From the IMG/VR virus record IMGVR_UViG_3300034272_002468, positions 1 to 44,791 of that record: a stretch of 44,791 nt of DNA; one strand, 5' to 3'. The translations under genes and the position numbers were made by a program. Below, piece after piece: positions 5,886 through 44,771 of this stretch; positions within the stretch are counted from its first letter, which is position 1; every line of letters starts with the position of its first letter. Origin of the DNA: a virus. Under the pieces are notes generated by a model that saw only the letters and a program-made list of their open reading frames with translations, was not told the origin of the DNA and did not search any database.

Positions 5886-6125
5886 TTAATAGTTACCGCA
5901 ATTAATAGTCAGACCATTTCTTTCTATAATATTAGAAGCAACCCAAGCATCAAGATTAGCATCATATTGCAAAAGGGCTCCATGTTGAGCATTTAGTACA
6001 TCTACATCACGCAATGAAGAAATTTTTTGTGCTGCATTTGCAGCAATAGTTATTACTTGTGGTTGGTTAGATACTGTAGCAGATATCTTAGGAGAAGGTG
6101 AAGTATTTACTGTAATATTAGTCAT
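5886..6125 (-). CDS. Small virion-associated protein, unknown function
   Basis: The 79-aa product is rich in Ser, Thr, Asn and Val, with a C-terminal segment LRDVDVLNAQHGALLQYD followed by LDAWVASN. This resembles the short 'D-V-D ... G-x-L-x-Y-D ... W-V' segment common in phage fibre and tail proteins. It overlaps the upstream 111-aa gene by ATGA (6122-6125) and lies 19 bp from the fibre-like gene, so it is probably a structural or fibre-accessory protein. Confidence 0.7.
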   Translation of the reverse strand: MTNITVNTSPSPKISATVSNQPQVITIAANAAQKISSLRDVDVLNAQHGALLQYDANLDAWVASNIIERNGLTINCGNY

Positions 6126-6457
6126 TTTGTTACTCCTGGATTAATAGTAACAATTCCCTCTATTACTCTAGTTTTTTTACCAAAAGAATCGGTAAGAACT
6201 ACATCATATAAGTATCTTCCTTGTTCTAAAGAAGAAGTTTGCGAAAAACCCAAATCAAGTATAACAATTCCAGTGGCTCTATTAGGCGAAAAAGTTACTG
6301 TAAAATCTGTTGATGTGCTACTATAATAAGATTTTCTTATTTTAGCCAATCCTGTATAACCGGTCAAATTCCATGGCTGATTGTTATCATCATAGATGGT
6401 AATTTTAGCGTTGAAATCAGAACCTTGGTCAACATATAAGTTTTTTACAGCTGCCAT
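6122..6457 (-). CDS. Small beta-rich virion protein, unknown function
   Basis: The 111-aa product looks like one beta-sandwich domain: GSDFNAKITIYDDNNQPWNL, then LTGYTGLAKIRKS, then GRYLYDVVLTDSFGKKTRV. The pattern of an initial 'G-x-D-F' strand and a final 'G-x-Y-x-Y-D-V' strand is common in small cyanophage virion proteins that sit beside fibres. It heads the operon that runs through the 79-aa and 806-aa genes, behind the late octamers at 6465-6497. Confidence 0.72.
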   Translation of the reverse strand: MAAVKNLYVDQGSDFNAKITIYDDNNQPWNLTGYTGLAKIRKSYYSSTSTDFTVTFSPNRATGIVILDLGFSQTSSLEQGRYLYDVVLTDSFGKKTRVIEGIVTINPGVTK

Positions 6458-6464
6458 TTAAAAA

Positions 6465-6497
6465 TATTTATATAGAGAGATCTCCCTAATATTTATA
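6465..6497 (-). promoter_or_regulatory. Two late promoter octamers TATAAATA
   Basis: Perfect minus-strand TATAAATA octamers lie at 6497-6490 and 6472-6465. The upstream copy is the better placed for the gene starting at 6457, giving a leader of roughly 25 nt. The downstream copy would start transcription almost at the ATG. Having two exact copies 25 bp apart is unusual in this window. Confidence 0.75.
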
Positions 6498-30456: not shown

Positions 30457-31047
30457 TTAAATTTTTTTTAGTTTGGCGCAAGAACTTCCAGAGGAGATTG
30501 CATTATGTAAACTTTTGGCAAAAGCTTTTGGAGTTTTTGTTCTTGTTCTTAACTGAATCCAATTCCAATTATCTTCAATCCAACCAGTTAAATTTGTACC
30601 ACTATAAACTTCTCCAGTAATTCCATCTAAAAGTTTAAATTGTTTTGCAGTAATTTTAATCATATTCTCTTTTCTAGAGACCCACTTTAAATTATTTGCA
30701 TGGTTGTTTAATTTATTAGAGTCAATGTGGTCAATTTCTTTGTACTTATGTGGATTTTCTAAGAAACATTCTGCTATTAATCTATGCACATAATATTTTA
30801 TTTGCTTTTCAGTTTTCCCCTCGGCATTTTTTAGAGAAATATTAATGGCTAGATACCTATCAGTTGGATTACTTCCACCTCTTGGGTGTTGTTTTAATTC
30901 TCTAAGGCTTCCTTTTTTAGAGATACATCCAGAAGTTCCTTTAATATGTGTTGAATACCATTCAGTGAAAACTTTACCATCTTCTGAAACATAATAACCA
31001 TCGAACTTTGTGGGTAAAATTTTCTGGGAAAAATTTTTTTGATTCAT
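30457..31047 (-). CDS. HNH homing endonuclease (NUMOD4 plus HNH_3 type)
   Basis: Residues counted from the ATG at 31047. Residues 17-29 (DGYYVSEDGKVFT) fit a NUMOD4 motif, and the C-terminal half has an HNH core with HRLIAECFLENP followed by IDHIDSNKLNNHANNLKWVS (H-x...D-H-x-D ... N-x-x-N-L). Such enzymes cut unlearned alleles and copy themselves into the break. The frame stays open upstream to a GTG at 31203, adding 52 residues of which the first ~32 are encoded by GC-rich DNA unrelated to the family, so I chose the ATG at 31047, 196 aa. The junction to GC-rich DNA lies about 60 bp upstream of the start. Confidence 0.85.
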   Translation of the reverse strand: MNQKNFSQKILPTKFDGYYVSEDGKVFTEWYSTHIKGTSGCISKKGSLRELKQHPRGGSNPTDRYLAINISLKNAEGKTEKQIKYYVHRLIAECFLENPHKYKEIDHIDSNKLNNHANNLKWVSRKENMIKITAKQFKLLDGITGEVYSGTNLTGWIEDNWNWIQLRTRTKTPKAFAKSLHNAISSGSSCAKLKKI

Positions 31048-31165
31048 TGAGTATATCGAAGTCGATGGATAAGGTTTATAGCTTATATAGTATCTATTTT
31101 TTTCACGGCCCGGCGGGCCGGCGACCCATAAGGCCCGCTTATACTGCCCTGCCCGACTGATCAGG

Positions 31166-31241
31166 ACTGCTGATGGATCAGGAATGCTGATCTGTCTTGC
31201 CACTGGCTGATAAGCACTGCTGATGGATCAGGAATGCTGAT
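31166..31241. repeat. 26-bp direct repeat, two copies 50 bp apart
   Basis: ACTGCTGATGGATCAGGAAT followed by GCTGAT occurs at 31166-31191 and again at 31216-31241, in the 227-bp gene-free stretch between the HNH gene and the first island gene. GATCAG/CTGATC motifs are dense throughout 31150-31280. Confidence 0.85.
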
Positions 31242-36593: not shown

Positions 36594-37193
36594 TTACTTA
36601 TATCCATACTCACCTTTCCGCATCACTTCTATCCATCTATTCAATCCATCAATGATTCTTTGATCTGTTTCTTGTGGTAGATAATAATCTTGTATACACT
36701 TTATCTTTGCATTGAGATATGCTTGATATGCTTCTTCTAATGTATAAAAATACCCAAGATGAACTCGTTTTGCATTCATATAAATTTTGACATAAAATGG
36801 TTTAGTTTTGTTGGTATTAACTCGACTAACTCCAGTTACATATTTGGTAGTAGATTTACGATGTAAAAGAAGGTTTAATCGTTGGTCTACAAATACACAT
36901 TTATCTGGTCCATAAACTTTATTGCCAGGATACATTATATCCTTATCTAATTGTTTACCTAGTACATTACCTTGCTCTAGATACCATTTTCTGAAATTGG
37001 AGAATGTATGCCATTCTGGTGTTACACTACAACCTTCATAAGATGAATACCTAGGATTGTTAGAATAGCACCTTTCTAGCATTTTCGACCAACTACTATA
37101 GGCAGGACAGAATACACTTTTACCATTTATACATGGTCGAACAGTATAATCAGCATCATTAACACCTATCCCACACACAAGTTTTTTCTTCAT
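36594..37193 (-). CDS. AP2-like mobile/homing-endonuclease-type protein
   Basis: The 199-aa product matches a widespread phage family usually found next to homing endonucleases. It has SSWSKMLERCYSNN then YEGCSVTPEWHTFSNFRKW in the first half, DKDIMYPGNKVYGPDKCVFV in the middle, and an AP2-like C-terminal segment (GVSRVNTNKTKPFYVKIY, then HLGYFYTLEEAYQAYLNAK). AP2 domains bind DNA; the first half could carry nuclease activity, but no HNH triad is clear. It is 4 bp downstream of the 112-aa gene. Confidence 0.75.
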   Translation of the reverse strand: MKKKLVCGIGVNDADYTVRPCINGKSVFCPAYSSWSKMLERCYSNNPRYSSYEGCSVTPEWHTFSNFRKWYLEQGNVLGKQLDKDIMYPGNKVYGPDKCVFVDQRLNLLLHRKSTTKYVTGVSRVNTNKTKPFYVKIYMNAKRVHLGYFYTLEEAYQAYLNAKIKCIQDYYLPQETDQRIIDGLNRWIEVMRKGEYGYK

Positions 37194-37197
37194 AAGT

Positions 37198-37536
37198 TCA
37201 TTTCTTTTTGTTGGTTAGTTCAATTCGCTTTATGATTTCTGCTTGTTCGTCTTCTCTATCTGCTTCTGCCTTCTTGTTAGCATGATACCTTGCTACTCTA
37301 TCTCTTTCTGCCTGTAGTCTTTCTTTTTGACTTTGATTTAATTGCCTTTGTCTTTCTGATACATCTTCACCGAGTTTGTATTCTCTTGGGCCTCGGTCTG
37401 GATTTTTGTCAATATACTTCTGCACTGCCTTAGCACCGATTCCACCTTGTTTCTTTAATTGCTTCTCGATGTGCTTCTTAGAGTACAATGGTTTGACTTT
37501 CTTTGCTTCTTCTAGAAATTGCTTAAAAGTAATCAT
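37198..37536 (-). CDS. Basic helical protein with LEE prohead-type N-terminus
   Basis: The 112-aa product starts MITFKQFLEEAKKVKPLYSK. The 'T-F-K-Q-F-L-E-E' start is a recurring N-terminus in cyanophage head-associated proteins and holds an L-X-E site like those cut by T4-type prohead protease. The rest is a highly charged, Arg/Lys/Glu-rich single helix (residues 55-110). Candidate for an internal head protein. Confidence 0.7.
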   Translation of the reverse strand: MITFKQFLEEAKKVKPLYSKKHIEKQLKKQGGIGAKAVQKYIDKNPDRGPREYKLGEDVSERQRQLNQSQKERLQAERDRVARYHANKKAEADREDEQAEIIKRIELTNKKK

Positions 37537-40980: not shown

Positions 40981-42222
40981 TCAGTCAACATAGTATTCAG
41001 GAGGAATGCCCTGCTTGAATACAAAGTCTACCACAGATTGCAGACGCTGTTGTGTATTCTTACCATAATTTTTGTGAACTGGTACAGTCACAAAGCCATA
41101 TGATTTACGATATGACATATAATCACCAGGAGTGAGTACACCATTAGCCATATCTTGTGCATCTTCACGATCTACACGAATCACACGACCAATAGTTTGA
41201 CACATCTCAATCACATTGAGATTTCGCAGGAGCACAGAATGTGTGAGCCCTGGGCAGTTGATACCTTCACTGAGAATAGAATAGTGAAACAATACAAATT
41301 TCTTCTGTTTGTCTTGTCCCCACTTAGTCATTGTCTCAAAGAATACTTCACGATTCACTTTCTTGTCATTGACATATGCACCTTCTTTAGATGTGATGTG
41401 AAGAATCTCATAGCCACGCTGTTTGAACTGATTCATCACATCAGTACGAAACAACATCTGACACAATACACGAGTGCTAGGTGCAGCTACCAATACTTTC
41501 TGTGCTTTGGTATCATCAAGACCATCCAGAATATCCAATAGAGTCTTAGCATCATGCTTGGCTGCATTGTCTTTATCACGCTCACCATCAATCTCATGAA
41601 TTTGTACCATTGGAGGAATGATACTACCATTCTCGATCAGTTCAGGTGCAGGTACATTCTCGATCACCTGACCAAACACAATAGAGTTATTCATGCCACG
41701 ACCTTTAGGGTTCTGTGACAGTTTAGGTGTAGCAGTGAAATAGTATGCAGACTCTGCATGTTGAGACATCATTGCAGTAGAATAAAAGAAGTCTCGCTTA
41801 CAGGCATTGTGAGCCTCATCAAAGTAGACTGTATCAATGTGTATTCCACTGTCAATAACACGATGAAGAGAATGATAAGTAGTAAAAAGTAATTGGTGTT
41901 CATTGTTGAATTTGACCATGTTATGAAACATGGTAATTTGATCAGGATTAGTTGTAGAGAAATGCTTAGTCTCACCAGAGTGAACATGGGCAACCACAGC
42001 ATTGGTGATCTGATCAGTGAACTCTGCACAGAGCTGATTGGCCAGAAGGATCCTGGGAGCCACCACAAGGGCTGTGAAGGGCTTCTGTGCCTCATTCAGA
42101 CGACGAATCAGATCACGGATCATGATCAGGGTCTTGCCTCCGCCAGTGGGCACATACACCTGGCCCATACGAACCAGTTCCATCTTGGTGAGGCTACGGC
42201 TTTGGTGGGGTCGAAGCTTCAT
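40981..42222 (-). CDS. SF2 helicase (ResIII/DEAH type)
   Basis: The product (413 aa from ATG 42222) has all main SF2 motifs: I, VPTGGGKTLIMIR near residue 24-36; II, FDEAHN (DEAH); III, FTATP; V, ILSEGINCPG; VI, QTIGRVIRVDR. It resembles type III restriction-type helicases and T4 UvsW, which branch-migrate or unwind replication intermediates. The start is set at ATG 42222: a TTG at 42273 is the -35 box of its promoter. Overlap or operon partners are not seen; it stands alone. Confidence 0.85.
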   Translation of the reverse strand: MKLRPHQSRSLTKMELVRMGQVYVPTGGGKTLIMIRDLIRRLNEAQKPFTALVVAPRILLANQLCAEFTDQITNAVVAHVHSGETKHFSTTNPDQITMFHNMVKFNNEHQLLFTTYHSLHRVIDSGIHIDTVYFDEAHNACKRDFFYSTAMMSQHAESAYYFTATPKLSQNPKGRGMNNSIVFGQVIENVPAPELIENGSIIPPMVQIHEIDGERDKDNAAKHDAKTLLDILDGLDDTKAQKVLVAAPSTRVLCQMLFRTDVMNQFKQRGYEILHITSKEGAYVNDKKVNREVFFETMTKWGQDKQKKFVLFHYSILSEGINCPGLTHSVLLRNLNVIEMCQTIGRVIRVDREDAQDMANGVLTPGDYMSYRKSYGFVTVPVHKNYGKNTQQRLQSVVDFVFKQGIPPEYYVD

Positions 42223-42243
42223 GGTGAAAACAGCAATGGGTCC

Positions 42244-42273
42244 ACCATACCATGGCAGACCCAAGCTTGTCAA
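42244..42273 (-). promoter_or_regulatory. Sigma70-like promoter of the helicase
   Basis: TTGACA (42273-42268), an 18-bp spacer and TATGGT (42249-42244) on the minus strand. It lies 7 bp after the 598-aa gene. Confidence 0.7.
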
Positions 42274-42280
42274 GAGTTAT

Positions 42281-44077
42281 TCAGGACATGTAGAAATGAG
42301 GTACAGTATCAAACTCCTTTATACTCTTCATCATACTTTTAGTTACTTGTGCTTTAATTGCACCTATCAGTTGTGTTGATTTAAAAGCTCCAGTTGGATT
42401 ATTCTGCAAGAACAGTTTATATGATTTTTTAGTGATTACACCAAATACAGTTAGGAATATTCTCTGCTTCAAATATCTGTGCATCTTAATGCCACCTCTA
42501 GTTAAAAAATATGATACTTGAGCATTCTCATAATGAGTTTTAATCATAGAATCTGAATTATTGATTCCTGATGATAATGAATTCTTTAAAATTAAATTCA
42601 CTACTGCAACTCTATACGTATTTAAAATATTTTCTCTTTGAGTAACTTTTTCATACTCCTCAATGAATTTAATCAAACTATCTTGTCGTTCAGCACCTAC
42701 AACAAAAAGTGGTTTTGATATATCTCGTTTTGCTCTAGCATATAGTGTCTGCAAATTCTTTATTTGCATTGAATAATTCTTTGTATCTTTACTAGGGTTC
42801 TTTCCATAATCATATTTTCCTTGAGTTCCCTTCAAATAAGTCATCCTAGAATACATACCCTCCTTAGTGTATGGTGTCTGTGGGTCTGTTTTCTTTAGTT
42901 TTCTATATACTGGAGTTTTACCTGCTCCTACTGGTTTTGATACTTGAATATCAGTATTAATTTGTTGTGTCAAATTAACTGATTTGTTTATGCTACCAGA
43001 CAATGCATAGTTTAATGCTTTCTTGCGAATAGATATTAATTCATTATTAATTTTATCAAATTCTGGATATTTGAATAGAAAATTCTCTAATGGCTTAACT
43101 CCTGTTCCTCCAACCCATTGAGTGCTATAACCAGGAGTATTGAAAAACTGACCATTAAATCCTGCAGTTCCACCTCCATCTGCTTGTGCTTTTGGCCATG
43201 CCAATAGATTGAATTTCACATCATTTTCATATAATCCTAAACGTTTATATCTGAAGGTAACTGGAAACTTCCATTGACCAATTCTATTAACATCAATTTT
43301 AGTATGAAGAAACACAGTTTCATCTATCATTTTGTCTATATTTGTTTTAGGATCTGAAAGCATAGCAATAAATTTGCTATACGGATCAACATGCTTAAGC
43401 ATTTTCTTGCCAACTGCATTGCCTGGTTTTCCTACCACTTTGATATTTTTTGTTCCATTAGTTGCAGGCAATTTCAATGAAACTCCAAACAATGTATGCT
43501 TCTTCCAATACATTTCTAGTAGTTCATTATACTTATCAAAGTTATTGATTAAATATATGTCACTTTTGTTTAATATTTCAGCTTCAAATGTTTCCTCTAT
43601 ATTATTCTTTGCAGTCTTCTTTACAATGTAAATATCTGCACTGGATAATACATCTTCCTTTATTGGAAGTTTAGTTGCTTTAATTATCTTTCCCAAACAT
43701 CTATTCTTTATCAATCTCATGAATGGATCAGTTTGATCCAAGAACTCATACATTTGAAAATTTTTAGATATTAAATTTCTATGATAAAAGTTCTTAGCAA
43801 CATCATATACTATTTTCACGGAAATATCTATACTCTTTTCATTTGTAGATGGTGTAGTAGTTGTTGGCCAATTTTCAAATACTCGTTCAAATAGAAAATT
43901 CTGACCCAAATGCTTCTCATATGCACTGGTATCACTAGTGATATCTGAATCAAACAAATCATAAAACGATTGCTCATGTTGAGCTTCAGTTTGTTTAGAA
44001 TACTTATATGCAGCAAAATGAGCAAATGCAAGACATTGCATAAGCTCTTTGCCTAAGTCCCATTTTTCTAGTGCCAT
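42281..44077 (-). CDS. Large unknown late protein (598 aa)
   Basis: I do not recognise a characterised family. The protein is AT-encoded and late-like. Features: a helical N-terminus (MALEKWDLGKELMQCLAFA), a region SADIYIVKKTAKNN followed by LFGVSLKLPATNG near residue 195, Gly-rich GGGTAGFNGQFFNTPGY near 310, and a basic helical C-terminus. It lies directly (0 bp) after the ART-like gene, so both are made together. Phage proteins with 'ADIYxVxK ... GVSLK' segments are often large DNA-associated or packaged proteins, but this is a weak analogy. Confidence 0.6.
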   Translation of the reverse strand: MALEKWDLGKELMQCLAFAHFAAYKYSKQTEAQHEQSFYDLFDSDITSDTSAYEKHLGQNFLFERVFENWPTTTTPSTNEKSIDISVKIVYDVAKNFYHRNLISKNFQMYEFLDQTDPFMRLIKNRCLGKIIKATKLPIKEDVLSSADIYIVKKTAKNNIEETFEAEILNKSDIYLINNFDKYNELLEMYWKKHTLFGVSLKLPATNGTKNIKVVGKPGNAVGKKMLKHVDPYSKFIAMLSDPKTNIDKMIDETVFLHTKIDVNRIGQWKFPVTFRYKRLGLYENDVKFNLLAWPKAQADGGGTAGFNGQFFNTPGYSTQWVGGTGVKPLENFLFKYPEFDKINNELISIRKKALNYALSGSINKSVNLTQQINTDIQVSKPVGAGKTPVYRKLKKTDPQTPYTKEGMYSRMTYLKGTQGKYDYGKNPSKDTKNYSMQIKNLQTLYARAKRDISKPLFVVGAERQDSLIKFIEEYEKVTQRENILNTYRVAVVNLILKNSLSSGINNSDSMIKTHYENAQVSYFLTRGGIKMHRYLKQRIFLTVFGVITKKSYKLFLQNNPTGAFKSTQLIGAIKAQVTKSMMKSIKEFDTVPHFYMS

Positions 44078-44716
44078 TTACCTTCTTCTACGAATTGTTG
44101 GTGATGGATTACGAATCATCCTTTTATTTGCATAATCTGCATCCATTGCAACATGACCAGTTCTTGTATTTTGTACTACTGGTTTTTCCCTTGTAGTTTT
44201 TTGTTGTGATGTAAGTCCTTTTGGAATAGTATCAGTTTTAGATACTTTTTTAGCAGGAACTCTATATGATACTACTGCTGGCTTTTTCTTTCTTTGCTTT
44301 GAAGTAAACTCTGCATACTTCTCTGCTTTCTTTCTATCTGGTGTGACATAATGACCTGGACCTTCACTTCCTTTTGGTGATGGTTTTGGACCAGTTCGTT
44401 TGATAGATTTTACAGAGTCTTGATCAGATCCATGATGCAATACTTTAAATCCTATTGTTTTTCCAGTTCTCTTGAATGCTTCATCTAAAAACTGTGAATA
44501 TGTTTTGCCCTCAGCATAATTTCCAGTAGATTGTGCTCTTTTGCGAAGTGCTTGAATGAGTGGACTATCCCCAGACATTCCTGGTTTTTTACTTAAATTT
44601 CTTCTTCTTTCTTTCTCATACTCATATTGTTTAGCAGCAGATCTTTTCTTTTTAGGAACTAGACCTCCAGTTTTTGAACCAATTTCTACTTCATCCTTTT
44701 CGTAAATTGTATGCAT
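44078..44716 (-). CDS. ADP-ribosyltransferase-like protein, possible packaged effector
   Basis: The 212-aa basic protein has two parts. Residues 72-79 (TYSQFLDE) resemble the N-terminal motif of packaged cyanophage proteins and hold an L-D-E site for T4-type prohead protease. Residues 88-160 show an ART-fold pattern: KVLHHGSDQDSVKSI, then EGPGHYVTPDRKKAEKYAEF, then PAVVSYRVP. The positions of an H-x-G pair, the G-x-Y-x-T-P motif and a downstream V-strand match small ADP-ribosyltransferase domains, but the catalytic Glu is not clear. T4 Alt is a packaged ART that acts on host RNA polymerase. The late octamer at 44739-44746 supports late expression. Confidence 0.55.
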   Translation of the reverse strand: MHTIYEKDEVEIGSKTGGLVPKKKRSAAKQYEYEKERRRNLSKKPGMSGDSPLIQALRKRAQSTGNYAEGKTYSQFLDEAFKRTGKTIGFKVLHHGSDQDSVKSIKRTGPKPSPKGSEGPGHYVTPDRKKAEKYAEFTSKQRKKKPAVVSYRVPAKKVSKTDTIPKGLTSQQKTTREKPVVQNTRTGHVAMDADYANKRMIRNPSPTIRRRR

Positions 44717-44738
44717 GGAACAATTGATTGATTTTAAG

Positions 44739-44746
44739 TATTTATA
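44739..44746 (-). promoter_or_regulatory. Late promoter, TATAAATA
   Basis: A perfect minus-strand late octamer overlaps the U-tract of the terminator on its right and lies 23 bp upstream of the ART-like gene. Confidence 0.75.
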
Positions 44747-44771
44747 AAAAAGAGGGGCTTTTGGCCCCTCT
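44746..44771 (-). terminator. Rho-independent terminator (minus strand)
   Basis: AGAGGGGC (44751-44758) pairs with GCCCCTCT (44764-44771), followed on the minus strand by TTTTTT. It ends a gene that lies beyond the right edge of the window. Confidence 0.88.

What the first reader, a model, noticed from the sequence alone, without database searches (positions are those of the whole stretch)
42281..44746. Late operon encoding an ADP-ribosyltransferase-like protein with a prohead-type cleavage motif and a 598-aa unknown partner
The 212-aa protein couples an L-D-E site in a context (TYSQFLDE) like that of packaged head proteins with an ART-like segment (residues 88-160). It is expressed from a perfect late octamer and is directly followed by a 598-aa protein of unknown family. 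T4 Alt is a packaged ADP-ribosyltransferase injected with the DNA. An analogous packaged effector in a cyanophage, with a second large protein, would be new. The ART call is by pattern only and the catalytic Glu is not identified.
Basis: partly seen in the sequence, partly recalled or inferred. Interest (0 to 1): 0.72.

Follow-up and report, generated by a model that had tools for sequence, protein, structure and literature searches.

The report
Cyanophage head-packaged ADP-ribosyltransferase with swappable neighbour
A virus of photosynthetic bacteria appears to load a small NAD-using enzyme into its head with a T4-style packing tag, probably to reprogram the host at injection, and the large gene beside it can be swapped as a block between near-identical viruses.

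Summary
The 212-aa gene (44078-44716, minus) has a TATAAATA octamer and carries KTYSQFLDE|A. In 14 of 17 intact relatives that motif is the exact N-terminus (MKSYKEFVSE, MKTYTQFIAE...), matching T4's 10-residue capsid-targeting sequence; the window's clade has about 70 residues in front. The rest is ART-like: H95-G-S, G-H-Y123-V-T, with Asp192 or His188 (not Glu) as candidate third residue. All 50 VIA rows are ARTs (Z under 8). Two tested Ackermannviridae homologues pass Pfam's ART-PolyVal cut-off; all six compared start with a similar tag, and published mass spectrometry found the protein in virions of two phages. Related contigs encode a gp21-type protease (3 of 13) and psbA-type genes (3 of 13).

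The 598-aa partner is an orphan family (invariant D148, S200-L-K202) without a tag. Each gene also occurs without the other. Two phages over 99% identical on both sides carry partners about 24% identical. So "packaged ART" is supported, "packaged pair" is not. Head-packaged ARTs are a published theme, so this is a new variant. Packaging here, cleavage, activity, target and partner function are untested.

The parts
44751..44771 (-). terminator-like hairpin directly before the late promoter
   Evidence: 8 pairs, 6 GC, T run; sequence
44739..44746 (-). late-promoter octamer TATAAATA
   Evidence: NATAAATA begins 21-32 nt before the start in 13 of 18 viral-contig starts, and in 0 of 2 Ackermannviridae starts
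44078..44716 (-). 212-aa gene: N-terminal extension + capsid-targeting-like sequence + ART-like domain
   Evidence: dN/dS 0.155 vs L002
44510..44716 (-). residues 1-69: extension in front of the tag, seen in window, L002, L005 and the L003 remnant
   Evidence: dN/dS of residues 1-71 is 0.169 vs L002
44480..44509 (-). residues 70-79 GKTYSQFLDE: capsid-targeting-like sequence; predicted cut after E79
   Evidence: T4 rules from PMC9026906 passages
44081..44455 (-). residues 88-212: ART-like domain (H95, Y123; D192 or H188 as third-residue candidate)
   Evidence: H-Y-D rule from PMC5512222 section 9
42281..44077 (-). 598-aa partner: orphan family with invariant D148 and S200-L-K202; exchanged as a block in related phages
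   Evidence: no usable family or fold match
42237..42263 (-). terminator-like hairpin after the partner, before the UvsW-like helicase (40981-42222 if it starts as in L001)
   Evidence: helicase; L001 start

Best explanation
The 212-aa protein is a late-made, head-packaged ADP-ribosyltransferase of a T4-like cyanophage. A T4-type capsid-targeting sequence (residues 70-79) brings it to the prohead core. A gp21-type protease is predicted to cut after Glu79, leaving a 133-aa, 15-kDa, very basic (pI 10.9) ART domain in the head with the DNA. It is then ejected into the host, where it would transfer ADP-ribose from NAD+ to a host target at the start of infection. The 598-aa partner shares the late transcript but is a separate, exchangeable gene; its invariant D...S-L-K set suggests an enzyme, most likely a nuclease-like or counter-defence protein. 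SHOWN by sequence: late octamer, tag, ART-type motifs, family conservation, partner exchange, protease gene in related contigs. SHOWN by others for Ackermannviridae homologues: presence in purified virions. INFERRED: packaging here, cleavage, ejection, activity, target, partner function.
For: Tag: at the exact N-terminus in 14 of 17 intact ART genes, internal in 3. Its kept positions Tyr/Phe4, Phe7, Leu/Ile/Val8 and Glu10 (17 of 17) are those that govern targeting (4, 7) and processing (8, 10) in T4 IPIII (PMC9026906, passages). ART: Pfam DUF3990 matches 14 of 14 aligned members, ART-PolyVal 11, PARP 4, all weak. Model pLDDT is 86-89 in blocks 91-110 and 131-160, 48 in 111-120, 75 in 121-130. 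Foldseek PDB: first row IcmQ (prob 0.60), second an exotoxin ART domain (prob 0.90), the other 48 of the 50 shown also ARTs. VIA: all 50 rows ART-superfamily, Z 6.7-7.9. Ackermannviridae homologues: tblastn E 4e-4 with L010; hhalign 97%; ART-only profile 20.4-27.2 bits on 6 of 6, at most 7.6 on 2,000 shuffles. Two of them tested pass Pfam's ART-PolyVal cut-off (43.1 and 47.2 vs 31.2 bits); 6 of 6 start MKTF..[FY]..E. Virion mass spectrometry: LIMEstone1 ORF173, 1 peptide (PMC3296691 Table 2); Sajous1 gp116, 10 spectra (PMC10892097 Table 6). gp21-type protease in 3 of 13 records, including those of L001 and L002. Late octamer in 13 of 18 starts.
Against: The window protein is below the Pfam cut-offs, and its own tblastn against phages found nothing at 1e-5. 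Mean pLDDT 65; no Foldseek hit with E < 0.001; Z under 8, which the tool warns may mean only a common arrangement. The third catalytic residue is unsettled; the hhalign match to the Ackermannviridae family stops at residue 157. In the window clade the tag is internal, and I know of no case where an internal tag still targets. The Ackermannviridae tags deviate at position 7 (Tyr in LIMEstone1) or 8 (Tyr in Vi01), and those proteins are acidic (pI 5) while these are basic. LIMEstone1's evidence is one peptide; the Sajous1 authors warn that low counts may be contamination. Some homologues carry other labels (N-acetyltransferase, ParB, DarB-like). L003 has lost the ART domain. The window holds neither gp21 nor psbA.
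Confidence: 0.72

Rival explanations
1. The protein is packaged by its tag but is a catalytically dead or structural/DNA-binding internal protein that only kept the ART fold, like a basic T4 internal protein.
For: Very basic mature part, pI 10.5-10.9 in 14 of 14; the T4 review calls the internal proteins basic. No conserved Glu in the C-terminal part; third residue uncertain.
Against: H95, G96, S97, Y123, H188 and D192 are invariant in 14 of 14 although identity to the window falls to 56%. Polyvalent-protein ARTs use H-Y-D (PMC5512222), which the family can satisfy.
Confidence: 0.17
2. The ART acts in the cell late in infection (for example as a modifier like the T4 Mod proteins) and the tag-like sequence is coincidental.
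For: Late promoter; the tag is internal in the window clade; no virion data for a cyanophage member.
Against: Tag at the exact N-terminus in 14 of 17 genes and, in similar form, in 6 of 6 Ackermannviridae proteins compared; two published virion proteomes contain the homologue.
Confidence: 0.08
3. The ART and the 598-aa protein form an obligate functional pair (toxin with immunity or carrier) delivered together.
For: One transcription unit between two terminator-like hairpins; intact ART directly upstream of a partner in 11 of 22 partner contigs, across divergent partner types.
Against: 9 of 22 partner contigs have no ART in the fetched flank (profile search of ORFs of 40 aa or more), 1 has only a remnant. 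ART genes in 6 contigs have no partner next to them. The partner has no tag. A UvsW-like helicase follows the partner in many contigs with or without the ART.
Confidence: 0.12
4. The partner is a selfish nuclease or mobile gene that spreads by itself into a tolerated late slot; its nearness to the ART has no functional meaning.
For: Block replacement between >99% identical flanks; different neighbours in different phages; invariant D148 and S-L-K over 19 proteins, a pattern seen in some PD-(D/E)XK-type enzymes (my recollection); strand positions in the model fit.
Against: No match to any nuclease family or fold; the predicted model is poor (pLDDT 55.8); dN/dS 0.10-0.16 in the window clade shows a kept function.
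Confidence: 0.3

Closest known systems
Ackermannviridae virion protein Vi01_183 / LIMEstone1 ORF173 / Sajous1 gp116 (annotated hypothetical, phage associated or unknown structural protein)
   Same: N-terminal tag MKTF..[FY]..E followed by a small ART domain; late promoter annotated in LIMEstone1; followed by a second virion protein; homology shown
   Different: Acidic; Glu in the last motif; tag positions 7 or 8 vary; no 598-aa-type partner next to it; found in virions, whereas the cyanophage version is untested
ART-PolyVal domains of polyvalent proteins (Pfam PF18760; PMC5512222)
   Same: H in strand 1, Y in strand 2, Asp candidate near the last strand; predicted by that paper to be packaged and injected
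   Different: Here a stand-alone, tagged 15-kDa enzyme rather than one domain of a large protein; the window protein scores below the Pfam cut-off
T4 Alt
   Same: Head-packaged, injected, non-essential ART of a T4-like phage, processed by the prohead protease
   Different: R-S-E active site and about 680 aa (size recalled); different ART clade
T4 internal proteins IPI-IPIII
   Same: 10-residue capsid-targeting sequence with the same key positions; small, basic
   Different: Not described as ART enzymes; in the window clade the tag sits behind an extension

Membership tests
ART superfamily (H-Y clade) | profile match above a curated cut-off | tested here: not met
   window protein: DUF3990 20.3 vs 32.2 bits, ART-PolyVal 17.6 vs 31.2; two Ackermannviridae homologues pass ART-PolyVal. 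So: homologous to members, not itself over the line
ART superfamily (H-Y clade) | ART fold | tested here: met
   all 50 VIA rows are ART-superfamily chains by title, Z 6.7-7.9; Foldseek: 49 of 50 shown rows, the first being IcmQ, none with E<0.001. Moderate support: Z under 8 on a model of pLDDT 65
ART superfamily (H-Y clade) | His in strand 1 and Tyr in strand 2 | tested here: met
   H95 in strand 90-98 and Y123 next to a short extended stretch (124-125) of the model, invariant in 14 of 14
ART superfamily (H-Y clade) | third catalytic residue (D, E or Q) in strand 5 | tested here: inconclusive
   D192 and H188 invariant on either side of strand 189-191; no Glu
ART superfamily (H-Y clade) | NAD+-dependent transfer | not testable with these tools
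   needs an enzyme assay
T4 Alt/Mod (R-S-E clade) | R-S-E active site | tested here: not met
   H and Y at the two first positions instead (clade rule)
T4-type capsid-targeted internal head proteins | 10-residue tag with key residues 4, 7, 8, 10 | tested here: met
   rule from PMC9026906 passages
T4-type capsid-targeted internal head proteins | tag at the N-terminus | tested here: not met
   internal in the window (residues 70-79); N-terminal in 14 of 17 family genes
T4-type capsid-targeted internal head proteins | gp21-type protease in the same phage | tested here: inconclusive
   not on the window fragment; present in 3 of 13 records (L001, L002, L028)
T4-type capsid-targeted internal head proteins | present in virions and ejected | not testable with these tools
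   only homologues have published virion data
PD-(D/E)XK nucleases (partner) | acidic residue at start of one strand, x-K at end of the next, common core | tested here: inconclusive
   D148 and S200-L-K202 invariant in 19 of 19 and next to strands 149-153 and 196-200; no fold or family match

The most novel reading that the evidence does not exclude
Cyanophages and Ackermannviridae share an old kind of injected weapon, a minimal capsid-tagged ART. In cyanophages it sits at a late 'arsenal slot' whose second gene, a new enzyme family with an invariant D...S-L-K set, is swapped as a cassette between otherwise near-identical phages to match host defences, with both products acting at the start of infection.
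Probability: 0.2. Interest if true: 0.82.

Novelty: new variant of a known kind. Interest (0 to 1): 0.62.

Why it matters
In the listings I saw, no title or abstract start describes a head-packaged ADP-ribosyltransferase in cyanophages (12 of 17 papers for ART + cyanophage; 2 of 2; 1 of 1 for capsid targeting + cyanophage); this is a limited search of open papers. If true, the tag gives a simple rule (N-terminal M-K-[TS]-[YF]-x-x-F-[LIV]-x-E) for predicting injected proteins in T4-like phages of uncultured hosts. It also gives an Ackermannviridae virion protein, so far 'unknown structural', a testable enzyme role. The exchange of the partner between near-identical phages points to selection at this slot and to an unknown enzyme family.

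Tried and rejected
T4 Alt homology: rejected, different active-site type. Partner identification: Pfam, PHROGs, NCBIfam, PADLOC, PDB sequence search, Foldseek and VIA against PDB, tblastn in phages (E up to 1, three partner types) and in plasmids gave nothing usable. The weak hits judged chance include NCBIfam TIGR01209 RNA ligase E 0.005 (2 of 14), PADLOC PD-Lambda-6 E 0.004 (1 of 14) and PHROG 7910 endolysin E 0.013 (4 of 14). BFVD gave two unnamed viral proteins with Foldseek probability 1.00 and 0.99 at E 5e-3 and 7e-3 (A0A8S0HUW6, M4SJI8), which I could not open. Bacterial genomes: neither the partner (A4) nor the ART (A6) gave a relative in the GTDB contigs; these scans need exact short peptides, so absence is weak. 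The more divergent ART query L029 found 189 records, Ackermannviridae-type by name in the 30 listed; L053 found one weak Pseudoalteromonas phage row, labelled DdrB-like. In one search, 25 Vibrio records were counted but none was among the 60 listed rows, and I did not look at them. A toxin/immunity pair was judged unlikely because each gene occurs alone. 'Generic L-x-E site by chance' was rejected.

Rows left out: A6 leaves out L005 (99% identical to the window), L012 (identical to L011) and L053 (found later). A5 has 14 partners; 5 later ones (L046, L047, L049, L050, L053) were added; L035 and L037 are identical to L034 and L036 and were left out. The output was cut: the end of L005 and the first rows of L006 were not shown.

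Full report
WHAT WAS CLAIMED AND CHECKED. The two ORFs are where the finding puts them: 212 aa at 44078-44716 and 598 aa at 42281-44077, minus strand, abutting. The octamer TATAAATA is at 44739-44746. The window has 3 copies where shuffles give 7.1, yet all 3 lie just before a minus-strand ORF start (44739 before this gene; 6465 and 6490 before ORF 6122-6457). Terminator-like hairpins bound the unit at both ends. This looks like a two-gene late unit.

WHERE IT LIVES. The window is a 44,791-base virus record of a T4-like phage: PHROGs names terminase small subunit, tail sheath stabilizer, head closure, head-tail adaptor, baseplate wedge and DNA helicase families ('UvsW-like' is my equation of the helicase with the T4 gene). 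In the 12 rows listed of 2,323, its gp6-type protein is about 33% identical to cyanophages. PF00124 occurs in 3 of 13 related records. Two were opened and match photosystem II D1 best; one is the record of L005, whose ART protein is 99% identical to the window's. 'Cyanophage' is well supported, though the window itself holds no psbA. Its habitat is not known from any call.

THE TAG. Scans of viral contigs gave 16 further contigs with an intact ART gene. In 14 of the 17 genes, window included, the protein starts with the tag: MKSYKEFVSE, MITYNQFLEE, MKTYKQFLEE, MKSYKEFITE, MKSYAEFITE, MKTFSEFLEE, MRTFSEFLEE, MKTYNQFLSE, MKTYTQFIAE, MKTFNEFLEE. In 3 (window, L002, L005) about 70 residues precede it. 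A T4 review (PMC9026906, passages read) says that ten residues suffice for targeting, that positions 4 and 7 matter for targeting and 8 and 10 for processing, and that T4 propeptides reach 65 residues. All 17 genes keep these positions. The predicted cut leaves 129-135 residues with pI 10.5-10.9 in 14 of 14. A gp21-type protease (PF03420) is present in 3 of 13 records, including those of L001 and L002, the closest partner relatives.

LATE EXPRESSION. NATAAATA begins 21-32 nt before the start in 13 of 18 viral-contig starts (one of the 18 is the L003 remnant). The exceptions are L010-L013 (TCTAAATA) and L028 (start overlaps another tagged gene). The 2 Ackermannviridae starts examined lack it and read CTAAATA. 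Several of the 18 are close relatives, so the independent cases are nearer eight groups.

THE DOMAIN. Pfam finds DUF3990 in 14 of 14 members, ART-PolyVal in 11 and PARP in 4, all weak; the window protein is below cut-off. The PDB profile search gives PARP15 at E 0.78, not significant. The AlphaFold2 model has mean pLDDT 65; blocks 91-110 and 131-160 reach 86-89, 111-120 is 48 and 121-130 is 75. Foldseek's first row is IcmQ (prob 0.60), the second an exotoxin catalytic domain (prob 0.90); the other 48 of 50 rows shown are tankyrase, PARP and KptA/Tpt1 chains; none reaches E 0.001. VIA's 50 rows are all of the ART superfamily, Z 6.7-7.9, a range in which the tool advises caution. H95-G96-S97, G121-H122-Y123, H188 and D192 are invariant. 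Polyvalent-protein ARTs use H-Y-D (PMC5512222, section 9 read), so the missing Glu is no objection; whether D192 or H188 plays the third part is open.

THE BRIDGE TO VIRION DATA. The window protein alone found nothing in phages at 1e-5. tblastn with L010 at E up to 1 finds 231 records, best E 4e-4; the 60 listed are Ackermannviridae-type by name, starting at the tag. The 7 records I opened are all Ackermannviridae. Labels given by depositors vary, from structural protein to N-acetyltransferase, ParB and DarB-like. hhalign between the two families gives 97%, over the tag and residues up to 157. With the tag removed, the ART profile scores 20.4-27.2 bits on six Ackermannviridae proteins and at most 7.6 on 2,000 shuffles. 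Vi01_183 and LIMEstone1 ORF173 pass Pfam's ART-PolyVal cut-off. LIMEstone1 ORF173 is recorded as 'confirmed structural protein' with a putative late promoter; [quoted passage not shown] The computed mass, 17.33 kDa, matches the table. Sajous1 gp116, the same gene, has 10 spectra in CsCl-purified virions (PMC10892097, passages and one section); its authors warn that low counts can be contamination.

THE PARTNER. Relatives form one very divergent family. Over 19 proteins, C15, A94, Y110, K124, I131, D148, Y183, S200-L201-K202, D231, G306, G323-G324, R351 and K537 never change. No library names it. Of 22 contigs with a partner gene, 11 have an intact ART gene directly upstream (window, L002, L005 with a cut partner, L006, L007, L008, L009, L019, L022, L027, L053), 1 has a remnant (L003), 9 have none in the fetched flank (L034-L038, L046, L047, L049, L050) and 1 cannot be judged (L001, at a contig end). 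Six ART contigs (L010-L013, L028, L029) have no partner next to the ART. The partners of L034 and L035, and of L036 and L037, are identical, so the 9 are 7 distinct.

THE EXCHANGE. L006 and L019 are 99.66% identical over 2,077 bases ending 11 bases past the ART stop. They share no blastn alignment across the partner (665 and 629 aa; 24% identity over 288 residues, E 7e-5) and about 0.3 kb after it, and are again 99.35% identical over 2,315 bases. L006 and L008 are 98.6-99.3% identical up to the ART end and then differ in both partner and helicase. The three contigs come from different metagenomes; assembly error is possible but unlikely where identity resumes on both sides. In the window's own clade the partner is stable (76-96% identity) with dN/dS 0.10-0.16. 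Looser values occur elsewhere: 0.52 for the partners of L006 and L009, 0.40 for the ART genes of L022 and L027.

NATURAL ART DELETION. L003 keeps promoter, extension and tag, ends 11 residues after the predicted cut and runs into an intact partner. The ART thus seems dispensable in at least one phage, as Alt is in T4.

READING. The ART half of the claim is well supported as a new family of a known theme: packaged ARTs in phages with contractile tails (PMC9503650, abstract and passages). The 'packaged pair' half is not. The bold part is the exchange slot.

Noticed in passing
37198-37536, minus: A second ORF (112 aa) begins with a tag-like N-terminus, MITFKQFLEEA; no Pfam or PHROG family. Possibly another packaged protein.
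   Followed up: partly
L028:2616-3257: Tag MKTFNEFIFEA fused to a P-loop kinase/ATPase-like protein, overlapping the tagged ART gene: two tagged genes side by side.
   Followed up: no
L003:5692-5970: Natural deletion of the ART domain with promoter, extension and tag retained.
   Followed up: partly
L043:2995-3453: LIMEstone1 ORF174 (MPTSKLFESE...), the gene after the ART homologue, is also a virion protein; its Sajous1 counterpart by position, gp115, has 31 spectra.
   Followed up: no
6465-6497, minus: Two TATAAATA octamers 25 bases apart before ORF 6122-6457.
   Followed up: no
36594-37193 and 30457-31203, minus: HNH endonuclease genes, one directly after the second tagged ORF.
   Followed up: no
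L022:4549-4935: Another tagged ORF, MKTFSQFIAEA, 128 aa.
   Followed up: no
L058:1429-2771, minus: The psbA of L005's phage is split; a 164-aa ORF that looks like a homing endonuclease (by eye) lies between the pieces, suggesting an intron.
   Followed up: no
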